The notes below the pieces were generated by a model. The model ran no database searches and was not told where the DNA came from. It saw nothing but the letters and a program-made list of their open reading frames with translations. A stretch of 51,481 nt of DNA from a virus: positions 1-51,481 of the IMG/VR virus record IMGVR_UViG_3300020020_000043. The stretch is one strand, 5' to 3'. Below, piece by piece: positions 13,341 to 27,437 of this stretch; the first letter of the stretch is position 1; each line of letters begins with the position of its first letter. The position numbers and the translations under genes are program-made.

Positions 13341-14590
13341 TGTCGATAACATTAACAGACTACATCGTCAAGAGGAATGTCCGTGCGTTCCTCTGGGCGT
13401 TGCGCTATGGTGAAGGCACGCAGGGTGAGGATGGGTACCGCACGCTGTTCGGTGGCAAGCTGTTCTTGGGCGCGGACGGTGTCTACAGCACGTTCGATGA
13501 CTTCGCCGATCACCCGCGCATCCGCACAACGGTCACGCTACGGAACGGCAAACGGCTGACGTCTACCGCGGCCGGTGCCTACCAATTCCTCGAGAAGACC
13601 TGGCTTGCCCTGTGTGGTGAATATGGGTTTATCAACTTCGAACCACCGACACAGGATCTGGGTGCTATAGCCTTGATTCATGGGCGCAAGGCCCTCGAGG
13701 ACGTCGTTGAAGGCCGTATCCATATCGCGGTGTTGAAGTGCAATAAAGAGTGGGCGAGCTTGCCAGGTTCACCCTACGGTCAGCCAGTCGTTACGCTGGA
13801 GGAATTTTTACGTGAGTACGAAGAGGCAGGCGGACTGTTGATGAACGAGGAAGCAGCTAAAGAACCGATGATGCTGCCGGTCAAAGAGCTTCCCGCTAAG
13901 TTGCCACACATTGCCAGCAAGACGGCGGAGATAGCACGTGGCAGCACGGACACCGGCGTTGAATTGCAACAGGAGAAAGCCATGCCCATTCCAGCCATCG
14001 TAGCAGCACTACTGCCGTCGCTCATCCAGCTTGTGCCGCAACTCACAAAGATATTTGGTTCTGGCTCTGAAGTGTCCCAGCGCAATTTAGCCGCGGCTGA
14101 AGCTGTCTTTACTGTAGCGAAGGATGCCATTGGTGCTAAGAATGAACAAGAGGTCATTGAAGCTATCAAGGCCGACCCTGTCCAGGCTACGGCTGTGAAG
14201 CAGGCCATAGAGAAAAACTACCTGAACATCCAAGAGGCTGGTGGCGGAGGTATTGCGGCAGCACGCAATTACAGTATTGCCGTTGCGCAAATGCGTACAC
14301 CACAAGGCGAGTCACTCTCGCTCATGTCACAGCCAGCCTTTGTTATTTCGATGGTCATGCTTGGGCTCGTTGTCATGATGGTGCTTGTCGTGCTCTTCCC
14401 GTGGGAAATATTTAGAGAGGGCGGTGGACAAATCTACACCGACGAGGTTAGACTAATCGTTGTGACAGCCATCATTGGTTCGCTTTCTACGATCGGGGCC
14501 TTCTGGCTCGGGTCGTCGTTCGCCGGCAGCCGTCAATCTGCGCTTGGCTCGCGCACCACACGTTCAACTGATCAAGGAGCACTACCATGA
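13340..14590 (+). CDS. Lambda-R-type endolysin fused to a 3TM-holin-like domain
   Basis: A 416-aa protein. I choose the ATG at 13340 because it overlaps the upstream TGA and starts the conserved domain; an in-frame ATG 57 nt upstream would lie inside the previous gene. Residues ~10-170 match lambda R / GH104 lytic transglycosylases: catalytic Glu in RYGEGT (E25), GYRTLFGG, DHPR, TAAGAYQFL and WASLPGSPYGQ. After a linker comes a second module of about 200 aa with PSLIQLVPQLTKIFG and two membrane helices (FVISMVMLGLVVMMVLVVLF; VRLIVVTAIIGSLSTIGAFW), resembling phage 3TM holins. The end overlaps the next gene as ATGA. An enzyme tethered to its own holin-like part is unusual. See the internal start at 13982. 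Confidence 0.75.
   Translation: MSITLTDYIVKRNVRAFLWALRYGEGTQGEDGYRTLFGGKLFLGADGVYSTFDDFADHPRIRTTVTLRNGKRLTSTAAGAYQFLEKTWLALCGEYGFINFEPPTQDLGAIALIHGRKALEDVVEGRIHIAVLKCNKEWASLPGSPYGQPVVTLEEFLREYEEAGGLLMNEEAAKEPMMLPVKELPAKLPHIASKTAEIARGSTDTGVELQQEKAMPIPAIVAALLPSLIQLVPQLTKIFGSGSEVSQRNLAAAEAVFTVAKDAIGAKNEQEVIEAIKADPVQATAVKQAIEKNYLNIQEAGGGGIAAARNYSIAVAQMRTPQGESLSLMSQPAFVISMVMLGLVVMMVLVVLFPWEIFREGGGQIYTDEVRLIVVTAIIGSLSTIGAFWLGSSFAGSRQSALGSRTTRSTDQGALP
13982..14590 (+). other. Possible internal translation start for a separate holin-like protein
   Basis: Within the fusion gene, an in-frame ATG at 13982 is preceded by AGGAGA at 5-10 nt spacing, better than the site of the full-length gene. It begins MPIPAIVAALLPSLIQLVPQ, which is exactly where stand-alone 3TM holins start. 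Translation here would give a 202-aa two-helix membrane protein without the enzyme. The same reading frame could thus supply both a free holin and an endolysin-holin fusion. This is inferred from the sequence only. Confidence 0.5.
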
Positions 14591-14799
14591 AGATCGAAGT
14601 CAGCGAAGGTTCCAGCGGTGTATGGTCCTGGCGTTTCAAGTCCGACAATGGTGAAACCACCATCGCCGAGGGCGTGAAGACCTTCGAGTCGAAGGCCGAA
14701 GCACAAAAGGCGGTCGCGTCGTTTGCTACGTCAGTCGGCGTAAAGGCGAACGCTGTCACCTATGTCCCGCTCAACCCGGAAGAAGAAGAGGAAAAGTAG
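14587..14799 (+). CDS. DUF1508/YegP-like small protein
   Basis: A 70-aa protein whose ATG overlaps the endolysin-holin TGA (ATGA). The pattern WSWRFKSDNGETTIAEG followed by FESKAEAQKAVASF resembles the DUF1508/YegP fold, small alpha-beta proteins of unknown function. The C-terminus is a run of Glu residues. Its last 40 nt overlap the end of the convergent nuclease gene on the other strand. It marks the right end of the first rightward block. Confidence 0.6.
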   Translation: MKIEVSEGSSGVWSWRFKSDNGETTIAEGVKTFESKAEAQKAVASFATSVGVKANAVTYVPLNPEEEEEK

Positions 14800-15266
14800 G
14801 GATCAATCCTGGGCAGTCTTTCTATCAGGGCTAGGGGTAGGGTACCGCCCATACGTTGCCCGCAATGCCAGGTCGCGACCTGGCGAAGCCTGGCGGCACT
14901 GGCAACCGACAGGGCACCCAGGTCCTCGGGGGTCATTCCCCGTAGGTCCACCAGCCAGGTTGCCGCCGGGTTGCCAATAAGACACCAGCATCTACCACCA
15001 GCCCAGGTCCGGCGGGAAGCGTAGATGATCTGTGAGCGCCGTAGACCGTAGGCAACGCCCAGCACCTGTGCGGTGTCGCCCCGAACGAAGTCGCTGAACT
15101 TCAATTCTATTCCGCCCTCAACACCGTCGACACAATAATTGACGTCGGGTGTGCCGTCGGCCACTACATTCTCAATGCGTTCGAAGTGGAAGCGCAGACC
15201 TAATGCCTGGCAGCTCTTGGTGAGGTTGGGCCGGATGCGCTCGGCCCAGAAGCCGACTTCATCCAT
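14760..15266 (-). CDS. VRR-NUC / PDDEXK-type nuclease
   Basis: A 168-aa protein with the PD-(D/E)XK core GTPDVNYCVDGVEGGIELK: D41, then E54-x-K56, with upstream Glu at 29 and 32. The G-T/I-P-D spacing is typical of VRR-NUC domains in phage replication modules. Such enzymes act on branched or flapped DNA, so a role in recombination or replication intermediates is likely. The start overlaps the upstream stop by 8 nt. The Ser-rich C-terminus is encoded antisense to the Glu run of the convergent gene, and the last residues may be dispensable. Confidence 0.7.
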   Translation of the reverse strand: MDEVGFWAERIRPNLTKSCQALGLRFHFERIENVVADGTPDVNYCVDGVEGGIELKFSDFVRGDTAQVLGVAYGLRRSQIIYASRRTWAGGRCWCLIGNPAATWLVDLRGMTPEDLGALSVASAARLRQVATWHCGQRMGGTLPLALIERLPRIDPYFSSSSSGLSGT

Positions 15267-15492
15267 GTCTCTTAAGCAGTGCCTCGAACTTGGCTTGCGC
15301 TTCTTCAGCGCGACTTTGTTGCTTAGGTGAGTCGCTGTCTGCTAGTCGCCAGTAGTCCTGCCCGAGTTGGAATGCCTGCTTTAATTCTTCACGGGATGCC
15401 TCGAGTAGTGCGTGGGCAAATATACGTACAGCAATAGTTGCTGGCGTGCCGACCTTCAGATGCCAGATTGTGTCGATTTGTTCGTCAGTCAT
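15259..15492 (-). CDS. Small helical protein of the replication block
   Basis: A 77-aa protein joined to its neighbours by overlaps: one base upstream (TAATG) and 8 nt downstream. It is predicted to be all-helical and charged (ALLEASREELKQAF; SRAEEAQAKFEALLKRHG), with no Cys, membrane segment or catalytic motif. It sits between DNA polymerase and nuclease genes and may be an accessory replication factor. I do not recognise it. Confidence 0.6.
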   Translation of the reverse strand: MTDEQIDTIWHLKVGTPATIAVRIFAHALLEASREELKQAFQLGQDYWRLADSDSPKQQSRAEEAQAKFEALLKRHG

Positions 15493-15815
15493 TAGTCACT
15501 GCTGCCTGTTTGATTTGGCTTGTTGATATAGAACATTTGTGCCAGGCTGGGACGCTCCAGCTTGGGAGCGAAGCCCTCGAGCTTTAGCACAAAGTAGAGC
15601 GGCAGGTTTGTCTCGAGTGCCCAATATTCTTTGCCGTTGATTTTCATCCTGCACACGAGAGCCTCGATGGCGTTGTACTTCTTGCCGTTAGATGCTTCGA
15701 CGTAGCCTTTTAGCTTGAGAGGCACACGCTCGCCAATCTCTTCGCTGACGTGCCGTGGGACATCGATTGTTCCCAGCAGGCGATCTGTTTCGGTACTCCA
15801 CAATTCGAAGTTCAT
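15492..15815 (-). CDS. Conserved-looking hypothetical downstream of DNA polymerase
   Basis: A 107-aa protein. I choose the ATG at 15815 because it overlaps the polymerase stop as ATGA; an in-frame upstream start would extend into the polymerase gene. It begins MNFELWSTETDRLL, with a beta-rich middle (ALVCRMKINGKEYWALET) and a Pro/Lys-containing end. No motif is recognised. Tight coupling to the polymerase suggests a replication-associated role, but none can be named. Confidence 0.6.
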   Translation of the reverse strand: MNFELWSTETDRLLGTIDVPRHVSEEIGERVPLKLKGYVEASNGKKYNAIEALVCRMKINGKEYWALETNLPLYFVLKLEGFAPKLERPSLAQMFYINKPNQTGSSD

Positions 15816-17857
15816 GAACACAACCCCCAATTAGCACCGACGGTCCGGTCGGCTCGGATTGGAACACTCAGCGTCATACAGTGTTCCATTATGTGAGTCA
15901 CCTCTGCTACGGCCTCTTGATGAATCTTGCTGGCTGTATTGGCGCTATGGCCAAGTTCGTCGTGACAGGTGAGCTTCGGAGGGCCAATGACCTTTGTGGC
16001 ACCGCTACGATGGAGCTGCCGCATAGCTTCCTTCATAAGGTCCGCAGCACTGCCCTGTAGCAATGCGTTCAGGGCCTTGTGCGTGTAGGCACGGGACACA
16101 CGCGGTCCCCAGGCCTCTATAGCGTCGTCGTACCGCTTGGCCTTGCCGTTGTAGTCCTCATGACCCCAGCGTGGTTCGAACAAGTCAAAGCGCGCACGGC
16201 GACCTCCGAAGGTTGTGATGAAGCCACGTTCGGCCGCACGCTTCTGTGCGGTGTTGTACGTGGCCCGGACAAATGGCAGGGCCTGGTGATACTGGTTAAT
16301 GATGTACTGAGCCTCTTCGCGGGAGAGATTAAGCTGGGCGATCATGGTGTCGACGCCCATGCCGTACACGAGTCCGAAGTTAATACCCTTCACCGGCTTG
16401 CGCCAACCTTTGCGTAGAGACGGACTGCTGATGTCCCAGCCAGTGAACGGTGCCACGAAGTCCAGAGTCATCTCGTGGAAGTCCGTGGTCGGGTCTGCGT
16501 TGTAGCGTTGACGTACAACCTCACCAGATGGCCCGCGGGCGTAGTGGGCAAGGAACCTGTACTCGATCTGGCTCCAGTCGTGACGCACCCACTCTTCGCC
16601 CTCTTCTGGTATGAACAAGGCCCGCAGCTTCGGACCCCAATACTCGTCACGCGACGGAATGTTCTGGAGGTTCGGCAGGCTACTCGAGAACCGTCCCGAC
16701 ACCGTGCCATTTGCGTCGCCCTTGAGTTGATGGAAGAGCGCGTACAGCCGGCCGTTGATATGCTTGTCCAGCACATACGAACGGACAAATGTGTTGCGGT
16801 ACTTCTGCAACTGCCTGCGGTGTCGCACAAGCTCACCGGCTGGGTGTTGCACACGTTCTAGCCATTCCTTGACGAACGAGGGGGCACCTGCCGCGGTCTT
16901 TGGATAGACAACACCGGCCGCGTCGAACAGTGCTGCCAGGTCGCTCTTGCTAATATCTTTGTCTGGGTCCAAGTTGTTGAGGACGCCACCGGACACGGCC
17001 TTGAGACGCATGTCGGCCTCGAGAATGCCAGCGGTAAGCTCGTCGTCCAGCAGCTTAGCGTAGCCAATGTCCACACGCACACCGGCCTGCCGCATCTGCA
17101 CCATCATTGGAATGAGCTCTGTCTCAAGGTCGAACAGACCCAGCATCAACTGCTGCTCAAGGATTGGCTGCTGTTTGGCCCAGATGCGTAGCGGGAGGTC
17201 CACGTCGCCCTCGGCATACGGCCCTACGAGACAGGGCGGTGCAGCCCAGATGTGTGCACGGTAGTTGTCGCCGTCACCGTAGGCACGTTCAATCCATGCT
17301 TGGAGTTCGTTCTTAACCTTGGACTCACCCAGGTACGACATGGACAGTGCGTCCAAGTTGTACGTGAATCTGTTCGTGTCGATTAGTGCTTCTGCGTGCT
17401 GGACGTCTATGAACGGGCCGGTGACGGGGACGCCCTCGCTCCACAAGGCGTCCACGTCATAGGAGAGGTTCGCACCGACCTTAGCCTGACCCTCGGTGCA
17501 CAGGTTGTCACGTGCCCATGCCAACACATGGCCAGGGTCGAGGTTCTGCTCTGGTGCTATCTTGTGGCGCATGGGGAAGTACCAGCGGCCACCGTCCAAC
17601 GTCCCGACGCTGATACCTACGATGTGAGCGCCTTCTTCGCCTTCTCGACGGAAGCCTGGACCCTTCTCCACAAGGGCGCGGTCCTTTGTCTCAGTGTCCA
17701 GACCCAATATCTTAGCCTCACATAGCCGCGGAAAAGCGCCCGGCGCCACCCATCCTGTATCTGGAATAGGTGGCGTCGGCCGATCATAATTGATTCGCTT
17801 CTCTTTGACCTGGAGCTCTTCCCAGAAGAAGCCAATCGAGTCATCGCGCTGGAGCAT
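15812..17857 (-). CDS. Family A DNA polymerase with 3'-5' exonuclease domain
   Basis: A 681-aa replicative polymerase. The N-terminal DnaQ-like exonuclease has DTE at residues 54-56 and later conserved Asp-containing motifs (DVQHAEALID, YNLDALS). The polymerase domain contains SGRFSSSLPNLQNIPSR, motif A (HDWSQIEYR, ~425), motif B (KGINFGLVYGM) and motif C (CHDELGHS, ~634). All catalytic acidic residues look intact. There is no 5'-3' exonuclease domain, as in T7-type and other phage PolA enzymes. It is coupled to its neighbours by abutting or overlapping ends and probably replicates the phage genome. Confidence 0.95.
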   Translation of the reverse strand: MLQRDDSIGFFWEELQVKEKRINYDRPTPPIPDTGWVAPGAFPRLCEAKILGLDTETKDRALVEKGPGFRREGEEGAHIVGISVGTLDGGRWYFPMRHKIAPEQNLDPGHVLAWARDNLCTEGQAKVGANLSYDVDALWSEGVPVTGPFIDVQHAEALIDTNRFTYNLDALSMSYLGESKVKNELQAWIERAYGDGDNYRAHIWAAPPCLVGPYAEGDVDLPLRIWAKQQPILEQQLMLGLFDLETELIPMMVQMRQAGVRVDIGYAKLLDDELTAGILEADMRLKAVSGGVLNNLDPDKDISKSDLAALFDAAGVVYPKTAAGAPSFVKEWLERVQHPAGELVRHRRQLQKYRNTFVRSYVLDKHINGRLYALFHQLKGDANGTVSGRFSSSLPNLQNIPSRDEYWGPKLRALFIPEEGEEWVRHDWSQIEYRFLAHYARGPSGEVVRQRYNADPTTDFHEMTLDFVAPFTGWDISSPSLRKGWRKPVKGINFGLVYGMGVDTMIAQLNLSREEAQYIINQYHQALPFVRATYNTAQKRAAERGFITTFGGRRARFDLFEPRWGHEDYNGKAKRYDDAIEAWGPRVSRAYTHKALNALLQGSAADLMKEAMRQLHRSGATKVIGPPKLTCHDELGHSANTASKIHQEAVAEVTHIMEHCMTLSVPIRADRTVGANWGLCS

Positions 17858-18088
17858 TTATTTCTTCAGGATGTTTGGCGGTAGTGTGCCCGCGAGTACA
17901 TGCATGTTTGCCGGGTCAGCATAGGCGACGTGATGCACTGGTTCACGTGTTTCTGCCGGAATGGGCGTGGTGCCCTCGTTGACGATGACTAGAGCTTCTT
18001 CCAAGAGCCTGTCCAATTGTGCGTTGCGCTCTTTGATCTCACGACCCAGCACAACCATCTGATGATATATCTCTTCGATGCGTGTCAT
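17858..18088 (-). CDS. Small coiled-coil protein between clamp and polymerase
   Basis: A 76-aa protein. Its ATG at 18088 overlaps the clamp-gene stop as ATGA, which decides the start. Its TAA directly precedes the polymerase ATG. Residues 1-45 form a probable helix (MTRIEEIYHQMVVLGREIKE), followed by a Pro-rich segment. It could bridge polymerase and clamp, but only position supports that. No family is recognised. Confidence 0.65.
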   Translation of the reverse strand: MTRIEEIYHQMVVLGREIKERNAQLDRLLEEALVIVNEGTTPIPAETREPVHHVAYADPANMHVLAGTLPPNILKK

Positions 18089-19044
18089 CTTTGACCTCCG
18101 AATAGCCCAATCACTTCGCCGGCTTTGAAGGCGTGTGTATCGGGTTTGATATGCCACTGGATAGCCGTGGCGTGCTCGAACACAAGCGCAGCCATGCGCG
18201 CGTTCAACTTCCCTGTGGCCGGCAACTCGAGGTCGTCGGCTTCGAATGTTTCGTCTAGTAGCCTCAACCCAGCCTCTCGGAACTCGACGATGGGTATGCG
18301 CATGTCCGCCAGCTTCACCGCCGCATCCAGGACACCGGCCAATGCGCTGTGCGGTGTTGCCCAATTGACCTCTTCCAGTCCGGCAACGTAGCCATCGACG
18401 ACGTGTGTGGGCCATTGAGCGGCGATGAGTTGTGTCTTTACCCAGCAGCCGTCTTCAAAGAAGAAGGTGACGCTGTTCTCGGCCACGCCCATGTCCACAG
18501 GTTCGCCCTTCGTTGTTACTGCGTCGAAGCAGGCTGATGGCACGATGACCGTCGTGGGCAACACCGTGGGGAATGGCACTCGACACAGAATGACGTTGTT
18601 CGTGGCGTAGGCAAACCCGTTGTGTAGGCAGATGCCATTGGCCCAGATCTTCGAAGAGTCGGTTGCCACGAACGGTCGGAGCTGCTCAATGAGGGCGGCG
18701 ACACCGGGCGCTGTGTGGGAGGTTTTGGGCGTGGGGTCGGTACGTGGGTATTCCCTGGCGTCTGTTAGACCGATACGGGAGCGCCTGGCGTGTCCCACGA
18801 CCATTAAACTTGCGTCGGTTACCCGGAAGGTCGGGTCGCCATCACAAACGCCCCATGCGCTGGCCAGCTTCACGGCGTCTACCGTGCAGAGAGGCATGCT
18901 GCATGGAACGTCCACCGTGTAGCGCCCGTTATTCACCTGCGCGCGTCGTTCACCGTACTCATCGTCATAGACGTGTAGCTTCTGGAAAGCTGGCAGAAGC
19001 GTACCTATGTGAGCACATAAGTATTTGAGTGTTGTAAGGTCCAT
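18085..19044 (-). CDS. Beta sliding-clamp-like protein
   Basis: A 319-aa protein. The middle segment VATDSSKIWANGICLHNGFAYATNNVILCRVPFP resembles the conserved inter-domain region of DnaN-type clamps, and the pattern of repeated beta-alpha-beta units fits. It is a little shorter than bacterial DnaN (about 366 aa). A clamp encircles DNA and raises polymerase processivity. The gene is coupled to dpdA upstream (TAATG) and to a 76-aa gene downstream (ATGA). The identification rests on pattern similarity alone. Confidence 0.6.
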   Translation of the reverse strand: MDLTTLKYLCAHIGTLLPAFQKLHVYDDEYGERRAQVNNGRYTVDVPCSMPLCTVDAVKLASAWGVCDGDPTFRVTDASLMVVGHARRSRIGLTDAREYPRTDPTPKTSHTAPGVAALIEQLRPFVATDSSKIWANGICLHNGFAYATNNVILCRVPFPTVLPTTVIVPSACFDAVTTKGEPVDMGVAENSVTFFFEDGCWVKTQLIAAQWPTHVVDGYVAGLEEVNWATPHSALAGVLDAAVKLADMRIPIVEFREAGLRLLDETFEADDLELPATGKLNARMAALVFEHATAIQWHIKPDTHAFKAGEVIGLFGGQR

Positions 19045-19982
19045 TAGAAGAAAGTCACTGCTGACCGCATGAAGGTCGGGCGTCCGAGCTTCTTCATGTA
19101 GTGTTTGAAATAACGCAAGTTCCAGGCGTCGCGAGCGCCATAGTTTGTAGCGAGGTCCTCCGGTTTGAATCCTTCAGCATGTAATAGGTCGGTGACGTAC
19201 TTCTGCGTCACACTGTCCAGGCTCCAGAAGCTCTTGTCTTCCGTCTTCACGTTTGGACTTTTCTCGGAGAACGAGATGGCCCGACGCTTGCCACCAATGT
19301 CCATGATGCAGCTACCGAACATCGAGATCATGACCCACGACGTCGAGTCCACGGAGTACCATGGATAGCGTTCCATAAGCTCGAAGGTTGTCAGGCCGAA
19401 GCCGTGGACCTTCACCCGCGGGCTGCCGTCTGGGTTTGCCAGGTACTTGTCGAAGATGTGGTCAAGCCATTCAATGAGGTACGGTGTTGGCTCCGGTACC
19501 ATGCCGCCGATAAAGATGTAGTCGTAGCCTTCGTCCAGGTACCGCACCAGCCATTCATCACGGTCGCGTGCATGGTGTACGGGGCAGACCTGTACCGGGA
19601 GCTTGAGCGACTCTAGGTACTTCTGGTTCTCGTAGCTCTTGGCCTCAAGGCCCGCACCTATGGCGTCCACGTTGGATGCTATCTCAATGTAGTCTTGCGC
19701 CCCCACGATGTAGCGGGCGTAACGGTCCAGGTCCACTTTGATGCCCAGAGTGAACATCGAGAACGCACCTGAGTCCATGAATATCTTGTGCCCGTTACGG
19801 CGGATTATTTCATCGCATTGTCCTTTGCCGATGTAGTGATAGCTTTCAAGGTGGAACGGGTACGATTCGGCGGCAGCAGCAATCTGCATTGGATTGCCAC
19901 TTGTAGAGTCTGCCCGATGACCGTTGTAACGAGCAGCAGCATAAATCTTAATGCAGTCATCAAAACCCTCTGTATGGTTCAT
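19044..19982 (-). CDS. dpdA: DpdA-like DNA 7-deazaguanine transglycosylase
   Basis: A 312-aa TGT-superfamily protein. FMDSGAFSMF (D70) matches the DSGGFQ motif of tRNA-guanine transglycosylases, and a second Asp in VDSTSW (D212) is placed like the nucleophile. A GG-containing strand (YIFIGGMVPEP) and KVHGFGLTT also fit the barrel. In phages, DpdA exchanges guanine in DNA for preQ0 or its derivatives. Here it lies directly downstream of folE and a small zinc-ribbon gene, in one operon with queE, queD and queC. I choose the ATG at 19982, which overlaps the upstream stop as ATGA, over a GTG at 19988. Confidence 0.8.
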   Translation of the reverse strand: MNHTEGFDDCIKIYAAARYNGHRADSTSGNPMQIAAAAESYPFHLESYHYIGKGQCDEIIRRNGHKIFMDSGAFSMFTLGIKVDLDRYARYIVGAQDYIEIASNVDAIGAGLEAKSYENQKYLESLKLPVQVCPVHHARDRDEWLVRYLDEGYDYIFIGGMVPEPTPYLIEWLDHIFDKYLANPDGSPRVKVHGFGLTTFELMERYPWYSVDSTSWVMISMFGSCIMDIGGKRRAISFSEKSPNVKTEDKSFWSLDSVTQKYVTDLLHAEGFKPEDLATNYGARDAWNLRYFKHYMKKLGRPTFMRSAVTFF

Positions 19983-20155
19983 GGGCACTCAGTGAAGATA
20001 TATCTTGTGAAGCTCATTCCACATTTGAGGCAGTGGCTGGGTTCTTCGTCGACTCGCCCGTCTTCCATTCGCGTTTGGATATAAGCCCATTCGTGCTGAC
20101 ATCCAGGGTGATAAGAAGGAGACACATGAATAACAGTGCCCGAACTAGCATCCAC
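19979..20155 (-). CDS. Small zinc-ribbon-like protein between folE and dpdA
   Basis: A 58-aa protein read from a GTG at 20155, 8 nt after GGAGG at the folE end. An in-frame ATG at 20209 lies inside folE and lacks a good site. It contains CQHEW, then HCLKCG and a late Cys, a likely zinc-binding arrangement. Its stop overlaps the dpdA ATG. A second ORF in another frame uses the same ribosome site (see findings). Position suggests a link to preQ0 insertion, but this is speculative. Confidence 0.55.
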   Translation of the reverse strand: MDASSGTVIHVSPSYHPGCQHEWAYIQTRMEDGRVDEEPSHCLKCGMSFTRYIFTECP

Positions 20156-20159
20156 ATGA

Positions 20160-20750
20160 TCAGCCTCCGTTGCAGGCGGCGAGGAACTCGGCACGTGCTT
20201 TTGCGTCATCTTTGATGGCTCCCTTTAAGGCGTTTGTGATGGTGTAGTGTCCCTGCTGGCAGACGCCCCGACTCTCCATGCACAAGTGCCTGGCGCGTAC
20301 CTGTACGCCGACACCGAGGGGCTTGAGGTTACGGTCAATGGCCCCGGCAATCTGTGCTGTAAGCCGTTCCTGGACCTGTAGGCGCCTGGCGAATGCGTCC
20401 ACGACACGGTTGATCTTCGACAGCCCCACGATGCGGCCGTTCGGGATGTAGGCCACCGTAGCTGTGCCGAAGATGGCGGCGAGGTGATGCTCACAGTGAG
20501 AGTAGAGTGGAATGTTCTTCACCACGATCATCTCGTCAACACCGTCGGCGCCGTCCAGGAACGTCTTGAGCAGGCTATCCACGTCGACACGGTAGCCGGC
20601 TGCCCAGAAGTCGTGCCAGGCGTCAGCCACTCGTTGCGGTGTTTCCTGGATGCCCTCGCGTAGACCTTCTGAACGGCTCAGCCCTTCTATATGGCGTAGT
20701 TGTTCTTCGATCGACATCGACATGCGTAGTAGATCGTCGTCCAGCTTCAT
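20160..20750 (-). CDS. folE: GTP cyclohydrolase I
   Basis: A 196-aa FolE protein, the usual length. Signature stretches are present: SHCEHHLAAIFG (zinc ligands Cys and His), IPNGRIVGLSKINRVVDAFARRLQVQERLT, and the second zinc Cys in RHLCMESRGV. It converts GTP to dihydroneopterin triphosphate, the first step of preQ0 synthesis. It is coupled to queE by an ATGA overlap. A phage copy beside queC/D/E and dpdA indicates a boosted precursor supply for DNA modification rather than for folate. Confidence 0.95.
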   Translation of the reverse strand: MKLDDDLLRMSMSIEEQLRHIEGLSRSEGLREGIQETPQRVADAWHDFWAAGYRVDVDSLLKTFLDGADGVDEMIVVKNIPLYSHCEHHLAAIFGTATVAYIPNGRIVGLSKINRVVDAFARRLQVQERLTAQIAGAIDRNLKPLGVGVQVRARHLCMESRGVCQQGHYTITNALKGAIKDDAKARAEFLAACNGG

Positions 20751-21580
20751 TCAACACCTCCGAACAAGTGTGTCTGACACGTCATACGCCGGTTGTAGTC
20801 CATTGCCAGCCGGGCTGCGTGTCTGTAGTTGAGGGCCGTTGCCTTCTGGTCTATGAGTGTGTCGTCCCAGATGGTGGCTACCTCACCTGGCAAGGTGCTA
20901 CGCTTGTAGACGGCCATGCCGCTGATGTAGATGTTGTTCTCGGCAACCAGTGCGTCCTCTGGTACGTCGTGATACGAAGATGAGCTGTCTGCTGTCACCA
21001 CGTACTTGAGGTCCAGCACGTCGGCACTGTTTAGCCAGAGGTGCGGTATGGCCGGGTACGTGCTACGAGTGTGCGGCACTTTGGGTGAGCACACGAAGCG
21101 CATGTGGCCGTGCTTGCGCGCGGTGTCGATCATTTCTTCGCGTAGCAGCAACCCGTTCGTCTCAAACTGCCAGGTCGGCCGGCTGAGCATTCCGAAGTGT
21201 GGGTCGACCTGGGCAATGATGTGCTTGATCTGTTGCCACTGCAATAACGGCTCACCGCCGGTGAACACAATGAGGTCGCACTTGTGCGCTTGCAGCTCGT
21301 GCATAATGGCGTCGTGTGCCTGTGTCACCCGGCCATCCGCCAGGTGGAACTTTGTGTCGCACCATGGACAATCTTGCTTTAGTCCAATGTTGCAGCCGGC
21401 CAGCCGTATGAACAGAGCGGGTTGGCCGGCATACGGGCCTTCGCCTTGTATGGTGTGAAACATACTGTGAATCAGGAGCTGGTCGGGCTGTAGCATTTCG
21501 TACGAGGTCTTCGTTGCGTTGACGTCTGCGTTGATGACGGGGAATTTTCGCTTTGTGGGTGGATCAAGAAGGCTGTGCAT
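20747..21580 (-). CDS. queE: 7-carboxy-7-deazaguanine synthase
   Basis: A 277-aa radical SAM enzyme. After MFHTIQGEGPYAGQPALFIRLAGC come C63, C71 and C74, giving a CX7CX2C cluster motif rather than the usual CX3CX2C. The conserved WCDT follows. VFTGGEPLLQ is the SAM-binding GGE motif. It turns 6-carboxy-tetrahydropterin into 7-carboxy-7-deazaguanine. The Cys spacing is unusual, but variant spacings are known in this family. It starts 3 nt after the queD stop, with GGAA upstream. Confidence 0.9.
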   Translation of the reverse strand: MHSLLDPPTKRKFPVINADVNATKTSYEMLQPDQLLIHSMFHTIQGEGPYAGQPALFIRLAGCNIGLKQDCPWCDTKFHLADGRVTQAHDAIMHELQAHKCDLIVFTGGEPLLQWQQIKHIIAQVDPHFGMLSRPTWQFETNGLLLREEMIDTARKHGHMRFVCSPKVPHTRSTYPAIPHLWLNSADVLDLKYVVTADSSSSYHDVPEDALVAENNIYISGMAVYKRSTLPGEVATIWDDTLIDQKATALNYRHAARLAMDYNRRMTCQTHLFGGVE

Positions 21581-21582
21581 CG

Positions 21583-22041
21583 TCAGTTCCTAGGGTTAAT
21601 ATAGATTCCCGAGTTCTTGTCGTTCTCACGTACCTCGACGCTGATGACCCAGCATCGGCCTAACGACTTCGAGATTAGATGTCCGTTCACCCATTCGCAA
21701 ACCCATTGTGCCGTGCTTTCCATGCCAACACCGTAGGGCAGCAAGCGGATCTTGGCCCCGCCTGCTTGCTCGATAGCGCGGAACGCTGGCAGCAGCGGGT
21801 CGTCCTCACACAGTAGAAGCGTGTGGTCGAAGTATTCATCGAGGAACGACTTCACCCAGCCGAGCTGACCGAAGTCCACCACGAAACCGCAAGCGTCGCG
21901 ATCGCTGGACCCGAAGACGAAGTGGAAGCTGCGCGAGTACCCATGCACCAGCGCGCAGACCCCCTTGTGCCGGTGTTGCCTGTGCGCGCAAGGGTAGTTC
22001 CAATAGATTTTGGTACTCTGGTGTGGTGTGGTGTCGTTCAT
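21583..22041 (-). CDS. queD: 6-carboxy-5,6,7,8-tetrahydropterin synthase, variant QueD
   Basis: A 152-aa protein of the 6-pyruvoyl-tetrahydropterin synthase fold. H20 (PCAHRQ), catalytic-type C29 and H33 fit the CxxxHG motif, but the usual second His of HGH is Tyr (HGYSRSFHF); H40 may complete zinc binding. VVDFGQLGWVKSFLDEYFDHTLLL is the typical second half. This HGYSRSFHF form also occurs in a bacterial QueD subfamily, so it is probably active. The start overlaps the queC stop as ATGA. It supplies the QueE substrate. Confidence 0.85.
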   Translation of the reverse strand: MNDTTPHQSTKIYWNYPCAHRQHRHKGVCALVHGYSRSFHFVFGSSDRDACGFVVDFGQLGWVKSFLDEYFDHTLLLCEDDPLLPAFRAIEQAGGAKIRLLPYGVGMESTAQWVCEWVNGHLISKSLGRCWVISVEVRENDKNSGIYINPRN

Positions 22042-22913
22042 GCTTCCTCCGCATCTTTGTCGGTTGCTGTGCCAGGTGGAGGCGTGTGCTTCCAGTGTGT
22101 CGGGTCCCGTTCGAACTCCACAATCTCTCCCAAGGTAATGCCACTCGCCATTGCTGCCGGCCAGCGAGCTTTAATCGCTGCCCAGCGCTCTACAAGCGGG
22201 TCGGGAATACCAGCCTGACGGAACCCCTCTGCCCGCAGCACACAGGCGTGACACTTACCGCAGGGGGGCGTTTCGCCGGCATAGCAGGTATGACTCATGC
22301 CCATGACCTTCTTCCAATCTGGGAAGCTGGCAGCGAGCTTGACAGTCTCGGCCTTTGTGAGGCTGATGAGTGGGGTTAGTACACGGAGCTGCGGTCGGTC
22401 CGCCTTGATGTAGTCCGGCCGGTTCATTCCAAGGGCCTCTTGCATGGCAAACGTCGTGGCCGAGATGAAGTCGTCGGTGCAGTCCGGGTAGTTGGCGTTA
22501 TCCATTTGACACACGCCGGTGACGATGTCGTAGCAGTCCAGGGACAGTGCGAAGTTCGCCGCCAGGGTGAGGAACAGCATGTTGCGTAGCGGTACAAACG
22601 TGAGCTCAACGCGGTCCTGGATCACCTGCTCCATCTGGTTGAAGTTGCTGTACGTCTCGAGCTCCGCGTGTGGGTTGATGAGTGGGCTGCGGCCGCGGAG
22701 GGTGCCGGCAACGTTGATGATGCGGTGGAGGTCAACACCGACCATGCCGGCGATACAGGTCGCCGCGTCAATCTCGATACGGTGCTTCTGACCGTAGTCG
22801 AAGGTGACGGCGAACACCTCCTTATAGCGTTCCTTGGCCCATAGTAGGCACGTGGTTGAGTCCTGGCCACCTGACAATACGACAACGACCTTGTCGCGCT
22901 TATGCTCATTCAT
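22038..22913 (-). CDS. queC: 7-cyano-7-deazaguanine (preQ0) synthase
   Basis: A 291-aa protein with the PP-loop ATPase motif SGGQDSTTC near the N-terminus and the zinc cluster CYAGETPPCGKCHAC near the C-terminus. It makes preQ0 from 7-carboxy-7-deazaguanine, ammonia and ATP. There is no fused glutamine amidotransferase (Gat) domain of the kind that gives archaeosine-type bases in some phages. I choose the ATG at 22913, 6 nt after GGAG, over longer in-frame starts that overlap the previous gene. Confidence 0.92.
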   Translation of the reverse strand: MNEHKRDKVVVVLSGGQDSTTCLLWAKERYKEVFAVTFDYGQKHRIEIDAATCIAGMVGVDLHRIINVAGTLRGRSPLINPHAELETYSNFNQMEQVIQDRVELTFVPLRNMLFLTLAANFALSLDCYDIVTGVCQMDNANYPDCTDDFISATTFAMQEALGMNRPDYIKADRPQLRVLTPLISLTKAETVKLAASFPDWKKVMGMSHTCYAGETPPCGKCHACVLRAEGFRQAGIPDPLVERWAAIKARWPAAMASGITLGEIVEFERDPTHWKHTPPPGTATDKDAEEA

Positions 22914-23547
22914 TAACATCTCCATTTGACGGTGTTTCCTTGAGCTTCTTTTTGACGGCGGCGAAGCTGATACCGTTGTTGCGTGCCCAGACGCCGGTCT
23001 GGGTGACTGCGGTACCCTCCTTGCTGCCATTGGCGATGAGGGTTTCGATGAGTTCTTTACGACCGACAACGCCCTTGCGGATGTCGTTGAACCGTGAGTC
23101 CAGGTACTTGTGAATTGTGGCGACCGGGCCGTCTGGCTTTCGGAACCCCTCGTCTTTTGCTGCTGTCATGATTTGCTCCATGTGGGATGAGGCAGGTACC
23201 GAATCGCCGGCACCGTCCTCATCGTCCGTGGCCGACTGACTACCGCGAAGAATAGCTGTCAAAACCCGGAGAGCTGACGGGGCAATGGGCAGCATCTTGC
23301 GTGCCTCTGCCTTCATGTAGCTGGTCGCAAAATCAACCGGAGTGTACTCAAGGTCAACACCGGCTACCTTCTTGACTGGGATGTGGGAGAACTCGCGTTC
23401 GAAGTGATCGTTGTCGACTGTGCAGACTGCGAGTTGGGGACCGCTGATGCCGACGTAGTGTGTTAGCTTGGGACCGCGCTTGAAGACGCAGACCATGTTC
23501 CGATGTCGGTTGGCCCTGATGGCCATTCCATTCTGTTCTGTGGACAC
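22906..23547 (-). CDS. Hypothetical protein at the head of the preQ0 operon
   Basis: A 213-aa protein with a GTG start after AGAAAGG. The N-terminal half (residues 1-95) is mixed alpha-beta. After an acidic linker, the C-terminal part reads like a helical DNA-binding domain (GRKELIETLIANGSKEGTAVTQTGVWARNNG). I do not recognise a family. It is first in the leftward block leading into queC, with a TATAAT box and a hairpin directly upstream at 23574-23597. It could be a regulator or processing factor, but this is only positional. Confidence 0.6.
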   Translation of the reverse strand: MSTEQNGMAIRANRHRNMVCVFKRGPKLTHYVGISGPQLAVCTVDNDHFEREFSHIPVKKVAGVDLEYTPVDFATSYMKAEARKMLPIAPSALRVLTAILRGSQSATDDEDGAGDSVPASSHMEQIMTAAKDEGFRKPDGPVATIHKYLDSRFNDIRKGVVGRKELIETLIANGSKEGTAVTQTGVWARNNGISFAAVKKKLKETPSNGDVNE

Positions 23548-23573
23548 GTTTATTGCCTTTCTGTGGAGGTTTA

Positions 23574-23597
23574 ATTATAGGGGCAAAACGCCCCTAT
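23574..23597 (-). promoter_or_regulatory. Promoter-like TATAAT merged with a GC hairpin
   Basis: On the minus strand ATAGGGGC-GTTTT-GCCCCTAT is immediately continued into TATAATTAAACC. The 3' arm of the hairpin thus supplies the first bases of a perfect -10 box about 27 nt before the GTG at 23547. TTGTTT lies upstream at about 18 nt spacing. It looks like a terminator-promoter fusion separating the small early genes from the preQ0-replication operon. Confidence 0.55.
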
Positions 23598-23605
23598 AAA
23601 CAAGG

Positions 23606-23872
23606 TTAGAGGGGCACAATGCGGTGGCTGTATTCCCGGAACGCTACGAGGTGAGGCACCATGACTTGCAGTCCAGGGCGGAACGATTCTTGCTGCCCGC
23701 CGAAGACGTGGCGGGTGACCTCGAGGATGTATGCGTCGAAGCCATGTTCGCGGTTGCACGTTTCGACGACCTTGCCTTCGTGGTAGCAGTCGTCACGGCC
23801 CGCCATCGGTTGGAATTCGTATGCACGAATGATGTCGCCGACCTTGAACCGATTTGCATGGGAGATTTTCAT
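23606..23872 (-). CDS. Small early-type hypothetical protein
   Basis: An 88-aa protein. The ATG at 23872 is chosen because it follows AGAAAGG and overlaps the upstream stop as ATGA. MKISHANRFKVGDIIRAYE resembles a small beta-barrel opening, and there are two Cys residues in the middle. No known family or catalytic motif is seen. It belongs to the row of short leftward genes typical of phage early regions. Confidence 0.6.
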   Translation of the reverse strand: MKISHANRFKVGDIIRAYEFQPMAGRDDCYHEGKVVETCNREHGFDAYILEVTRHVFGGQQESFRPGLQVMVPHLVAFREYSHRIVPL

Positions 23873-24078
23873 GATGTACCTTTCTGTGTTGATGCACAAT
23901 TATAACCCGGATTCATCTCGGGTTCGTAGTTCCTCGCGTATTCTTTTGCGACGGTAATGTTCTTCGCGTAGGTGATGAACTTGCCGTCCGGCCCGTAGAC
24001 GGCGTAGACGCCAGGCTTGGAGACGGACAGGTTCGCCGTGAGGCCGTTGGCCAGGGAGTGAGTGATTGCGTAGCCCAT
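23869..24078 (-). CDS. Small early-type hypothetical protein
   Basis: A 69-aa protein with GAGGA before ATG. The core GVYAVYGPDGKFITYAKNITVAKEYARNYE is a compact strand-strand-helix unit like other tiny early proteins here. The final codons run through a CCGGGTTATAATTG stretch that looks like the promoter elements between neighbouring genes, so an embedded promoter for the next gene is possible. Function unknown. Confidence 0.55.
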   Translation of the reverse strand: MGYAITHSLANGLTANLSVSKPGVYAVYGPDGKFITYAKNITVAKEYARNYEPEMNPGYNCASTQKGTS

Positions 24079-24085
24079 ACCGTCC

Positions 24086-24532
24086 TCAGTCTACGTAGCG
24101 TGCGCCAGTAAGGCCCAGGCGTCGGTCCAGGGCGTCGAGTAGGTTGTGTGCCTTGGCCCTAGCATCCCGCGCCAGGGCGGCGTTATCTGCCGTGCCGTAG
24201 GGGTTGACACCGACGCACAGTCGTAGCACGCGCCTGGCTTGCCGTAGCAGTTCTTCGTCTGTGTGTTGTTTCTCGTTTGATGCTGGCATAGTGTTCTCTT
24301 TGAGGTGTTCACATGAGGGGCTGATGCTTCGGACGTCGGCGAAGATGTCGCGTACAAGCGTGTCGTAGGCAGGGTCTTTGATGGCGTAGGGGTAAAGCTC
24401 GTAGAGCACGGCGTGGATGACTTGCGGGCGCTCTTCGATGCAGCGCAAGCCCAGAAGTACCGTGATTTCTTTACGCACACGGCCCTTCTGTTCTTCGGGC
24501 CATTGTGCCCAGGGAATGTTCGTGTTAGTCAT
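24086..24532 (-). CDS. Hypothetical helical protein
   Basis: A 148-aa protein. I choose the ATG at 24532, inside the last codons of the upstream gene, over an in-frame start about 126 nt further upstream that gives a Ser/Thr-rich leader antisense-like to real coding. It begins MTNTNIPWAQWPEEQKGRVR and is predicted mostly helical, ending in a Leu/Arg-rich helix (LLDALDRRLGLTGARY). An internal ATG near 24289 could start a shorter form. No family is recognised. Confidence 0.55.
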   Translation of the reverse strand: MTNTNIPWAQWPEEQKGRVRKEITVLLGLRCIEERPQVIHAVLYELYPYAIKDPAYDTLVRDIFADVRSISPSCEHLKENTMPASNEKQHTDEELLRQARRVLRLCVGVNPYGTADNAALARDARAKAHNLLDALDRRLGLTGARYVD

Positions 24533-24776
24533 TGTAGACCCGGATGGTGACGCAGCCGAGGTTCTGCCTGTAGTCGACGGCAATGAGGTCGCGGTCGTTG
24601 CCCTCGAAGTGGTATTCGGTGCGGTTGAAGTGCTGGCCGTTGCCGAGGAAGTCGACAAACGTGAAGGCGACGGGCCAGGTGCCAGGGGGCCAGCCCAGGC
24701 TGGAGGCCTCGGCCGTGTAGCTGTGAAGGCTGGCGACGGTAAGGACGTCGAGGGTGTTGCAATCGGAGGTGATCAT
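24525..24776 (-). CDS. Small early-type hypothetical protein
   Basis: An 83-aa protein, probably beta-rich, with PPGTWPVAFTFVDFLGNG and a C-terminal DLIAVDYRQNLGCVTIRVYND. It overlaps the downstream start by 8 nt. A TATAAT box followed by a GGGGC-TTCG-GCCCC hairpin lies directly upstream (24796-24815). No function can be assigned from sequence. Confidence 0.6.
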   Translation of the reverse strand: MITSDCNTLDVLTVASLHSYTAEASSLGWPPGTWPVAFTFVDFLGNGQHFNRTEYHFEGNDRDLIAVDYRQNLGCVTIRVYND

Positions 24777-24795
24777 TTCTGGTGCTTTCTGTTGT

Positions 24796-24815
24796 GGGGC
24801 CGAAGCCCCATTATA
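24796..24815 (-). promoter_or_regulatory. TATAAT box followed by GGGGC-TTCG-GCCCC hairpin
   Basis: Reading leftward, TATAAT (24815-24810) is followed at once by a five-pair GC hairpin with a TTCG loop, then ACAACAGAAAGC and the ATG at 24776. The hairpin would lie at or near the 5' end of the transcript, where it could protect the mRNA. No good -35 box is seen. Confidence 0.5.
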
Positions 24816-24820
24816 GTTGA

Positions 24821-25627
24821 TTACTTGGCCACGATGTCCAGAACACGGTTGGCGAAGTTCCAGATGCCGGCGTTGAAGTCGATGTCCCGGTTCACGGCGT
24901 TGATACCGGACACGGTGATGGTGCGACCGCCGCGGTCCTGGGCGACGTACCCGCCCTTCATGGCGTTCTCCTGGACCCGGTTAAACACCGACCAGAGGGT
25001 GTTGCTATCGTCTTCTGCCCGGCGGATGGACAGGAGGCCGTCGACGTGGTCTTCGCGCTTCTCGCCCCACTTCAGGAGGGTTGCGCCCGTAGCGAACTCG
25101 ATGGCTTGCTGCTTGGTGAGCTCCACCTGCTTCATTTTCTCGACCCGCAGGAGCGCAGTGTTAGCGTGGACTTCGCGGATGATGTTCGTGCCGTCCAGAA
25201 TGTGGTCCATCATCTTGGGGTCGTTGTGCAGCACGCGAATGCTACCGTATTCGGCCGAGGGAATCATGAGGCCGTTGAGACAGGCCAGCACCTTGAGGGC
25301 CGCCATCATTTGATACGACGACGTGCGGTTGTGGCTGTTCGTCATGGCGATTTCAGGGACGAAGTCACCTACGGCCAGCTTGCCGTTGAGGTAGTCGTTG
25401 TGCACCAGACGCACGAGGTGCTTGGCGTAGGGCTTCTTTTCCGAGTTCATGGTGCGCGACTGGGACACCTGAACGACTTCCCAGCCTTCGGTGCGCATGG
25501 TGTCGATGACGTCGGCGGTGCGAACGAACTGATAACGGTCGGAAGCGCCGGGTGCGGGTTCGTTGGCAAACACGCTGGGAGCTGCGCGGGCGATGTCGGA
25601 ATTGGTAAGGGCGATGAGCTTGGACAT
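24821..25627 (-). CDS. DUF932 family protein
   Basis: A 268-aa protein matching the DUF932 / phage-plasmid-like pattern: WEVVQVSQSRT early, then PEIAMTNSHNRTSSYQMMAALKVLACLNGLM, and a C-terminal helical part. These proteins occur in plasmids and phages, often among early genes, and their function is not established. The ATG follows AGAAAGG. Upstream is a TACAAT box with a near-perfect CGCAACAC-c-GTGTTGCG dyad. Confidence 0.75.
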   Translation of the reverse strand: MSKLIALTNSDIARAAPSVFANEPAPGASDRYQFVRTADVIDTMRTEGWEVVQVSQSRTMNSEKKPYAKHLVRLVHNDYLNGKLAVGDFVPEIAMTNSHNRTSSYQMMAALKVLACLNGLMIPSAEYGSIRVLHNDPKMMDHILDGTNIIREVHANTALLRVEKMKQVELTKQQAIEFATGATLLKWGEKREDHVDGLLSIRRAEDDSNTLWSVFNRVQENAMKGGYVAQDRGGRTITVSGINAVNRDIDFNAGIWNFANRVLDIVAK

Positions 25628-25654
25628 GGTAGGCCTTTCTAGTTACTGGTTAAC

Positions 25655-25685
25655 CGCAACACCGTGTTGCGATGTACGTATTGTA
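25655..25685 (-). promoter_or_regulatory. TACAAT box with downstream 17-bp odd dyad
   Basis: TACAAT (25685-25680, minus strand) followed by ACGTACAT and the dyad CGCAACAC-c-GTGTTGCG (25655-25671). The dyad lies near the expected start site, an operator-like position, ahead of the DUF932 gene at 25627. One arm plus centre contains the octamer CAACACCG that is repeated through the window. A 19-bp dyad of the same design is at 27438. Confidence 0.5.
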
Positions 25686-25760
25686 TCGGGAAAAGTGGGC
25701 AACGGGCATGGGTTGCCTCACTTAGATGTAACAGTTTGTGTCAGTGGGATTTGTTGGATT

Positions 25761-26540
25761 TCAGTTCAGCCGACCCTGCTTGGTGACGTCATTGCCAACG
25801 GCCCGGCGGTTGACGTCAATCTTTTTACCTGCGGCGTGGCCGTCGTGGTACGCAGTGAAGTCGACCTTGGCCTTGGACTCTTTGGTGGCGTACTGGAACG
25901 CACCGAACTTCTCGGCGATGGCATCTTTCTTCACCACGACCAGCGCCCGGCTGGCGACCGCCTGCTGTTGCTCATGGTGGCGTTCCGCGGCCATAGCCTT
26001 GATGTTGTGCAGTATGCCCATTGCCATGCCGCTGCGGTAGGAATTCATGACCACGCGACCGCCGGCAATGTACCGTGCGTCCTTGCGGAACGCCTTGCAC
26101 AGGCGGTTGACGGTGGAGATGAGGTACTCGTACGTCCAGGCGGCGACCTTGACGTCGGTGTCGTACCCGAAGAACCGGATGCAGGCTTCCTGGCCCTTGG
26201 CGGTACGCATGTGAGCGTTACGTGCACCGCAGTCGTGCATGTCGGCCACCGCTACGGCAATCCACTGTGCCCAGCCTGGGACCTGCTTGCACAGCATGGG
26301 GCCGACTGTAGCGGTCGCCATGACGTCCACGGTCGTCATGTTCTCGCCGTGGCCCTTGCGGATGTCCTGGGCGATGGCATCAGCGTAGTCAATGTCGAAC
26401 TTGCGCATGAGCTTTTCGGCCTGGCCGGCAGCTGCGGCTGCTTCGTGCTCGTTGGCACGGTTGTCTTCGGCGATGGCCAGCAGCTTCTGGATGCGGCGCA
26501 GGACGGAGGCGCGCTCGGTGTTGAAATTTTGGTCGTTCAT
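25761..26540 (-). CDS. DUF2786 domain protein
   Basis: A 259-aa protein. Residues 8-55 (VLRRIQKLLAIAEDNRANEHEAAAAAGQAEKLMRKFDID) match the DUF2786 pattern of a KLLALA helix, then an N-EA-A-A helix pair. The rest contains a Cys/His patch (DMHDCGARNAHM) and a conserved FFGYDTDV segment seen in longer DUF2786 proteins. The family is common in phages and actinobacteria; its function is unknown. It has its own promoter-like region at 26574-26610. Confidence 0.75.
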   Translation of the reverse strand: MNDQNFNTERASVLRRIQKLLAIAEDNRANEHEAAAAAGQAEKLMRKFDIDYADAIAQDIRKGHGENMTTVDVMATATVGPMLCKQVPGWAQWIAVAVADMHDCGARNAHMRTAKGQEACIRFFGYDTDVKVAAWTYEYLISTVNRLCKAFRKDARYIAGGRVVMNSYRSGMAMGILHNIKAMAAERHHEQQQAVASRALVVVKKDAIAEKFGAFQYATKESKAKVDFTAYHDGHAAGKKIDVNRRAVGNDVTKQGRLN

Positions 26541-26573
26541 GGTAGCCTTTCTGGCGGGGTTGATTTCTGGGGT

Positions 26574-26610
26574 TCGAAACCCCCTATGGGGTTTCGATAC
26601 CTGGATTATA
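26574..26610 (-). promoter_or_regulatory. TATAAT box followed by 10-bp-stem hairpin
   Basis: TATAAT at 26610-26605 (minus strand), then CCAGGTA, then TCGAAACCCC-ATAG-GGGGTTTCGA, then the AGAAAGG site and ATG at 26540. The perfect ten-pair stem lies in the predicted 5' leader. No T-run follows, so it is not a simple terminator. Confidence 0.5.
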
Positions 26611-26619
26611 GCTCAACTA

Positions 26620-26820
26620 TTAGAGCGTTTCGTTGATGGCTCTATCAATTGCCAATTTTCGCATCTCGAAGCGACGGATGGCCTCCACCAGACCGTCGGA
26701 CTTGAGGTCGTCCAGGATGCGCTTGCGGGCGGCCTCGTAGAGGGGTTGCATGGCGGCCAGGGCAGCTGCCCGTGCCTCTGCCTTCTCGGCAATGGTCTGT
26801 GCGTATTGTTCGAAGCTCAT
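26620..26820 (-). CDS. Small helical early-type protein
   Basis: A 66-aa protein starting at the ATG preceded by GGAGAAC, which decides against an in-frame ATG 36 nt upstream. It is nearly all helix (EKAEARAAALAAMQPLYEAA; AIRRFEMRKLAIDRAINETL). It could be a small binding or inhibitor protein. No family is recognised. Confidence 0.6.
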   Translation of the reverse strand: MSFEQYAQTIAEKAEARAAALAAMQPLYEAARKRILDDLKSDGLVEAIRRFEMRKLAIDRAINETL

Positions 26821-26830
26821 TTTTGTTCTC

Positions 26831-27157: not shown

Positions 27158-27197
27158 TGTTGTTCCTCGAGGGGCACTTGGCCCCTTCTCTTTTGAT

Positions 27198-27419
27198 TTA
27201 GTTTGCAACGCAGAAGGTGAAGTGGACGCCAGCTTGAAGTGCACGCTCGCCAAGGAACACCGGGAAGAAACGCCCTGCCGCGTTGACGCTCAGGATGTAG
27301 GACAGGCGTTCGCCGTTCTGGGCCGTCACGCGTTCGCCAAAGGCCTTTTCAACGGCCTTGACTGCGTTCTCGCGGGTTGCGTAGGTCTTGTTCGGGTTCA
27401 GTTCGATGTGCTGGATCAT
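27198..27419 (-). CDS. Small early-type hypothetical protein
   Basis: A 73-aa protein beginning MIQHIELNPNKTYATRENAVKAVEKAF, an alpha-beta start where an AxxA helix follows a strand, as in several short early genes of this window. The C-terminal half is beta-rich with FFPVFLGERALQAGVHF. The ATG at 27419 is chosen because AGAAAG precedes it. Function unknown. Confidence 0.55.
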   Translation of the reverse strand: MIQHIELNPNKTYATRENAVKAVEKAFGERVTAQNGERLSYILSVNAAGRFFPVFLGERALQAGVHFTFCVAN

Positions 27420-27437
27420 TTCTGGCTTTCTGTTGTC

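What the first reader, a model, noticed from the sequence alone, without database searches (positions are those of the whole stretch)
19044..22913. Complete preQ0 pathway plus DpdA: DNA probably carries dPreQ0
Seen: folE, queE, queD, queC and a TGT-like dpdA in one overlapping operon together with polymerase and clamp. Established: phage DpdA exchanges DNA guanine for 7-deazaguanines, protecting against restriction; FolE-QueD-QueE-QueC make preQ0 from GTP. No QueF, no Gat-QueC fusion and no obvious amidase or methylase partner is in the window, so dPreQ0 is the simplest prediction. The full four-gene supply suggests the host may not make enough, or that replacement is extensive.
Basis: partly seen in the sequence, partly recalled or inferred. 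Interest (0 to 1): 0.72.

Follow-up and report, generated by a model that had tools for sequence, protein, structure and literature searches.

The report
Phage operon for preQ0-modified DNA
This uncultured phage carries the full set of genes that known phages use to make the guanine analogue preQ0 and swap it into their own DNA, a known anti-restriction strategy; the one unusual part is a QueD enzyme whose zinc-binding site is altered in a way shared by many related phages and bacteria.

Summary
On the minus strand, queC, queD, queE, folE and dpdA (22913 to 19044) overlap or abut, followed by a sliding clamp and a family A DNA polymerase. The DpdA model has the TGT fold (Z 18-19, including the solved DNA preQ0 insertase 7ui4) with both active-site aspartates. 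No QueF or glutamine-amidotransferase domain was found in the 51,481-base viral record or in four relatives. The same gene order is the commonest among 80 viral contigs with DpdA, and phage CAjan, with this gene set, has about 32% of G as dPreQ0. "Extensive replacement" and "host supply too low" are untested. One real oddity: QueD carries CxxxHGY, not the published QueD signature CxxxHGH (a zinc His replaced by Tyr). The variant occurs in 32 of 72 DpdA operons sampled, swaps with the canonical form at least 6 times on the DpdA tree, and is the only QueD-family gene found in two bacterial draft genomes that have QueC, QueE and TGT. It is most likely a working QueD with a remodelled metal site.

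The parts
22038..22913 (-). queC, 7-cyano-7-deazaguanine (preQ0) synthase, 291 aa, no Gat domain
   Evidence: PF06508 E 1.2e-58, TIGR00364 equivalog 187.8 bits over cut-off 150.3; SGGQDS, YGQKHRIE, VPLRN, YPDC and Cx7CxxCxxC present
21583..22041 (-). queD-like 6-carboxytetrahydropterin synthase with CxxxHGY (C29, H33, Y35) in place of CxxxHGH; catalytic Cys and Asp72-His73 kept
   Evidence: PF01242 E 7.6e-18, phrog_2389; below the NCBIfam QueD cut-off, 31.5 vs 89.25 bits; model pLDDT 94 matches E. coli QueD 4ntk/4ntn, TM-score 0.82-0.85 by target; alignment A3
20747..21580 (-). queE, 7-carboxy-7-deazaguanine synthase, radical SAM with Cx7CxxC cluster motif
   Evidence: phrog_2076 E 1.5e-35, Radical_SAM over cut-off; Cx7CxxC in the window's clade, Cx3CxxC in most others
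20160..20750 (-). folE, GTP cyclohydrolase I
   Evidence: PF01227 E 2.2e-61, TIGR00063 equivalog over cut-off
19979..20209 (-). small ORF of at most 76 codons with a Cys-His...CxxC arrangement; overlaps the dpdA start by ATGA; function unknown
   Evidence: no family hit above cut-off; conserved with the same Cys/His in L003 and L004 but not found in more distant relatives
19044..19982 (-). dpdA (DpdA1 type), DNA guanine to preQ0 transglycosylase; D72 and D214 (numbered from the GTG at 19988) are the TGT-type active-site aspartates
   Evidence: phrog_887 E 7.4e-53; AlphaFold model pLDDT 90, VIA Z 18-19 to TGTs and 18.3 to DpdA 7ui4; D72, D214 and H195 invariant in 31 sequences
18085..19044 (-). 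sliding clamp / DNA polymerase processivity factor
   Evidence: phrog_947 E 1.3e-28; clamp follows dpdA in most related loci
15812..17857 (-). family A DNA polymerase
   Evidence: PF00476 E 3.7e-57, phrog_17 E 1.7e-109

Best explanation
This is a phage 7-deazaguanine DNA-modification operon of the dPreQ0 kind. FolE converts GTP to dihydroneopterin triphosphate, the QueD-like protein makes 6-carboxytetrahydropterin, QueE makes 7-carboxy-7-deazaguanine, and QueC converts that to preQ0. DpdA then exchanges guanine in phage DNA for preQ0, probably during or after replication by the adjacent polymerase and clamp, so that cutting by host restriction enzymes is weakened. Shown here: gene identity, order, intact motifs in QueC and DpdA, the TGT fold of DpdA, and absence of a detectable enzyme for further conversion in this record. 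Inferred: enzyme activity, the modified base, its amount and its protective effect. The QueD member belongs to a CxxxHGY variant that most likely performs the normal QueD step with an altered metal site.
For: Family matches. QueC motifs complete against the published catalytic signature. DpdA model fits TGT and the solved DNA preQ0 insertase 7ui4, with D72, D214 and H195 invariant across 31 homologues. The operon QueE-QueC-QueD-FolE-DpdA-clamp is the commonest layout among 80 DpdA viral loci, and the same set, with a few differences in order and inserted small genes, lies next to clamp and polymerase in CAjan, RHEph04, ART and ply2008005c. CAjan carries about 32% of its G as dPreQ0, and this is lost on dpdA deletion (PMC6884629). 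No QueF or GATase in the window or in four relatives; the only QueF-like signal is the folE gene itself, a T-fold relative.
Against: No chemistry has been done on this virus. QueD fails the published CxxxHGH signature and the NCBIfam QueD cut-off, so one of the four supply steps rests on fold and context. QueE also scores below all NCBIfam QueE cut-offs. The record is linear and may lack genes. Six-base palindromes are still avoided in this genome (O/E 0.77), so selection by restriction seems not to be abolished.
Confidence: 0.85

Rival explanations
1. The DNA carries a different or further processed 7-deazaguanine (dADG, dG+, dPreQ1) because a later enzyme is missing from the record, supplied by the host, or not recognised, or because QueC stops at the amide.
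For: The record is linear and 51 kb, while the closest relative's contig is 59.9 kb. Several proteins of the replication block have no known family. Related DpdA phages do carry Gat-QueC.
Against: No GATase or QueF in the window or in G016-G019. All QueC motifs and zinc ligands intact. The window's DpdA subclade lacks Gat-QueC.
Confidence: 0.1
2. The genes raise preQ0 for host tRNA queuosine rather than for phage DNA.
For: Some phages with preQ0 genes but no DpdA are proposed to do this (PMC6884629). DpdA shares the TGT fold.
Against: DpdA is of the phage DNA-modifying type and lies in one operon with polymerase and clamp. 9g dpdA did not complement an E. coli tgt mutant, and CAjan dpdA deletion removed the DNA base. 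No QueF is present.
Confidence: 0.04
3. The QueD-like protein is not a carboxytetrahydropterin synthase, so the phage pathway is incomplete and depends on host QueD.
For: CxxxHGY instead of CxxxHGH, loss of one zinc His; below NCBIfam cut-off. In Synechococcus-type genomes the HGY gene coexists with other PTPS genes.
Against: Catalytic Cys29 and Asp72-His73 are invariant. HGY and HGH forms alternate within the same operon at least 6 and up to 17 times on the DpdA tree. Gammaproteobacterium HIMB30 and MAG MED759 have only one PF01242 gene, the HGY form, in genomes with QueC, QueE and TGT.
Confidence: 0.15

Closest known systems
Escherichia phage CAjan 7-deazaguanine operon (NC_028776, Seuratvirus, dPreQ0)
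   Same: DpdA1, FolE, QueD, QueE, QueC without Gat domain; dpdA followed by clamp and DNA polymerase; DpdA 35% identical
   Different: CAjan QueD has CxxxHGH; CAjan has a putative preQ0 transporter gene and a different small gene before dpdA; window QueD has CxxxHGY and window QueE Cx7CxxC
Enterobacteria phage 9g dG+ operon (KJ419279, Nonagvirus)
   Same: Same gene order QueE-QueC-QueD-FolE-DpdA-clamp-polymerase; DpdA 36% identical
   Different: 9g QueC is fused to a glutamine amidotransferase domain, which gives dG+; absent here
Rhizobium phage RHEph04 and Achromobacter phage ART operons
   Same: Same gene set and the same CxxxHGY type of QueD
   Different: Their QueC lost the four zinc Cys residues; the window's QueC keeps them
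Bacterial DpdA (PDB 7ui4) of the dpd island
   Same: TGT fold, VIA Z 18.3 over 268 residues
   Different: About 15% identity; the NCBIfam DpdA model scores only 24 bits against a cut-off of 200; no dpd restriction genes seen here

Membership tests
Phage dPreQ0 group (Hutinet et al. 2019, second group) | DpdA or DpdA2 homologue present | tested here: met
   phrog_887 E 7e-53; TGT fold Z 18-19
Phage dPreQ0 group (Hutinet et al. [quoted passage not shown]
   QueD assigned by fold, family profile and context, not by signature
Phage dPreQ0 group (Hutinet et al. 2019, second group) | No Gat-QueC, QueF or ArcS | tested here: inconclusive
   No QueF (beyond the folE cross-match) or GATase in the record or four relatives, none seen in the Pfam/PHROG annotation; ArcS not searched with its own model; record linear, may be incomplete
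Phage dPreQ0 group (Hutinet et al. 2019, second group) | dPreQ0 in virion DNA | not testable with these tools
   needs LC-MS of DNA
DpdA1 (as opposed to DpdA2) | Conserved histidine near residue 196 | tested here: met
   H195, invariant in 31 sequences; definition from PMC6884629
DpdA1 (as opposed to DpdA2) | TGT-type catalytic Asp pair | tested here: met
   D72 in DSGAF and D214 in VDSTSW invariant in 31 sequences; assignment to TGT Asp102/Asp280 is from general knowledge, as the tools gave no residue-level superposition
Canonical QueC | SGGxDS, YxQxHxxE, VPxRN, YPDC, Cys zinc site with the Tyr189 equivalent | tested here: met
   SGGQDS, YGQKHRIE, VPLRN, YPDC, CYAGETPPCGKCHAC; first spacing C-x7-C rather than C-x8-C
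Canonical QueD (PTPS-I) | CxxxHGH signature | tested here: not met
   CALVHGY in the window; signature from PMC5041015
Canonical QueD (PTPS-I) | PTPS/QueD fold | tested here: met
   model pLDDT 94; E. coli QueD 4ntn TM-score 0.85 by target, A. baumannii QueD2 7v0f 0.71 by query
Canonical QueD (PTPS-I) | Carboxytetrahydropterin synthase activity | not testable with these tools
   needs complementation or assay

The most novel reading that the evidence does not exclude
A CxxxHGY form of QueD, in which one zinc-binding histidine is replaced by tyrosine (and in many members another by Phe or Tyr), is a second, metal-remodelled kind of 6-carboxytetrahydropterin synthase. It is used interchangeably with canonical QueD in phage DNA-modification operons and as the sole QueD in some bacteria, and it breaks the published rule for annotating QueD.
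Probability: 0.7. Interest if true: 0.42.

Novelty: new member of a known kind. Interest (0 to 1): 0.33.

Why it matters
The virus adds a divergent uncultured lineage to the known phages that protect DNA with 7-deazaguanines, so its DNA can be predicted before any isolate exists. The more useful by-product is the QueD variant: the current annotation rule (CxxxHGH) misses an enzyme form found in close to half of the DpdA phage operons sampled, and the NCBIfam QueD cut-off misses the window's member. It offers a simple test of how few of the zinc ligands QueD chemistry needs.

Tried and rejected
1) Genome-only test of DpdA activity through relief of restriction-site avoidance. In the window, palindromes containing GA are less avoided than others (O/E 0.94 vs 0.70), and pooled DpdA loci differed from controls (1.22 vs 1.00). 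With de-duplication and GC matching the difference became small or overlapping (1.22 vs 1.16 at GC 0.45-0.55), fell further with the higher Markov order, and relative G018 went the other way. Rejected as evidence. 2) The small Cys/His ORF before dpdA as a conserved DpdA partner: found only in the closest relatives; CAjan, RHEph04 and ART have unrelated small ORFs there. 3) QueF-like signal in the window and in G016: in the window it lies inside folE. 4) A GATase_4 hit on 31271-31834 at E 0.017 is below cut-off and on a Pam3 gp33-like protein: not taken as an amidotransferase. 5) A link between HGY-type QueD and Gat-QueC or zinc-less QueC: HGY occurs with all of them. 6) Rosebush could not be fetched, so its QueD type is unknown. 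7) Vid5 and Dp-1, two further phages with a measured base, have HGH QueD, as have CAjan and 9g, so no phage with a measured base and an HGY QueD was found.

Full report
What was checked. The window is one whole IMG/VR virus record of 51,481 bases, classed linear. It carries terminase, portal, head, endolysin, primase, helicase, clamp and polymerase genes, so it is a tailed phage genome or most of one. The operon region (14000-28000) has no DNA-level match in 50,697 phage records.

The operon. On the minus strand queC (22913-22038), queD (22041-21583), queE (21580-20747), folE (20750-20160), a small ORF (20209-19979) and dpdA (19982-19044) overlap by a few bases or lie 2 bases apart (the small ORF overlaps the end of folE by 50 bases if its first ATG is used), followed by a sliding clamp (19044-18085) and a family A polymerase (17857-15812). 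Pfam, PHROGs and NCBIfam support the identities. DpdA, QueE and QueD score under the NCBIfam equivalog cut-offs; divergent phage forms often do.

DpdA. The closest phage homologues in GenBank are 35-44% identical; uncultured relatives reach 94%. An AlphaFold model built on 31 homologues (pLDDT 90) matches tRNA-guanine transglycosylases (Foldseek E 4e-7; VIA Z 18-19) and the solved DNA preQ0 insertase 7ui4 (Z 18.3, 268 residues). D72, D214 and H195 (numbering from GTG 19988) are invariant. The His marks DpdA1 rather than DpdA2 (PMC6884629).

The product. QueC has the motifs defined as the catalytic signature of E. coli QueC, several of them tested there by mutation (PMC13329287), and the four zinc cysteines, with no Gat domain. 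No QueF or GATase is detectable in the window or in the records of four relatives, G016-G019, and no methylase or amidotransferase was seen in the Pfam and PHROG annotation. Hutinet et al. [quoted passage not shown] Their dpdA deletion in CAjan removed the base. That replacement is extensive, or that the host makes too little preQ0, cannot be judged.

How common. Among 80 DpdA viral contigs fetched, QueE-QueC-QueD-FolE-DpdA-clamp is the usual order. The window falls in a clade of seven DpdA sequences without Gat-QueC where QueC was seen. In that clade QueE has a Cx7CxxC cluster motif where most others have Cx3CxxC.

The QueD variant. The published QueD signature is CxxxHGH (PMC5041015); its two histidines are zinc ligands in E. 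coli QueD (general knowledge). The window has CALVHGY. Of 72 DpdA viral loci with a detectable QueD, 32 have HGY and 40 HGH. In an alignment of 28 HGY proteins the catalytic Cys29, His33, Tyr35 and the Asp72-His73 pair are invariant, and the position of the first zinc His (H20 in the window) is often Phe or Tyr. The model still has the QueD fold. On the DpdA tree the two forms change place 17 times by parsimony, at least 6 times on well-supported branches (a quick tree), so they replace one another inside the same operon. The closest bacterial homologues are HGY too (80 of 80, though chosen by similarity). Gammaproteobacterium HIMB30 and MAG MED759 have a single PF01242 gene, the HGY form, together with TGT, QueC and a QueE gene next to queC. 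These are drafts, so a missed paralogue is possible. Taken together, the variant most likely does the QueD step. No phage with a measured base and an HGY QueD was found: Vid5, Dp-1, 9g and CAjan all have HGH.

A test that failed. Six-base palindromes are avoided in the window (O/E 0.77). Relief at GA-containing palindromes looked like a footprint of DpdA but did not survive GC matching and de-duplication. It is not used as evidence. The continued avoidance does suggest that the modification does not remove selection by restriction enzymes.

Verdict. A real and well-formed dPreQ0 operon; a new member of a known kind, with one noteworthy variant enzyme.

Noticed in passing
window 21583-22041 (-): QueD has CxxxHGY instead of CxxxHGH; the variant is shared by 32 of 72 sampled DpdA phage operons and by bacterial homologues that may be the sole QueD of their genomes.
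   Followed up: yes
L100, L104, L106, L115, L116, L118, L122 and others: About a third of QueC proteins in DpdA phage operons have lost the four zinc cysteines (for example SHTSYDGKYPPTDMNHANVLRA) while keeping the rest of the operon. Whether they still make preQ0 is unknown.
   Followed up: partly
window 20747-21580 (-): QueE of the window's clade has a Cx7CxxC iron-sulphur motif (CNIGLKQDCPWC) where most phage QueE have Cx3CxxC.
   Followed up: partly
window 19979-20209 (-): Small Cys/His ORF overlapping the dpdA start, conserved only in the nearest relatives; possible zinc ribbon.
   Followed up: partly
whole window: Strong avoidance of some 6-bp palindromes: ACCGGT 0 observed of about 18 expected, GGGCCC 0 of 10, TGTACA 0 of 9, AGTACT 0 of 8, pointing to restriction pressure despite the predicted modification.
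   Followed up: partly
window 1010-8833 (+): A 2,607-codon ORF with only a partial match to phrog_8917 of unknown function, the largest gene of the phage.
   Followed up: no
window 30408-33179 (-): Three nearby proteins match phage Pam3 gp34, gp33 and gp32-like families.
   Followed up: no
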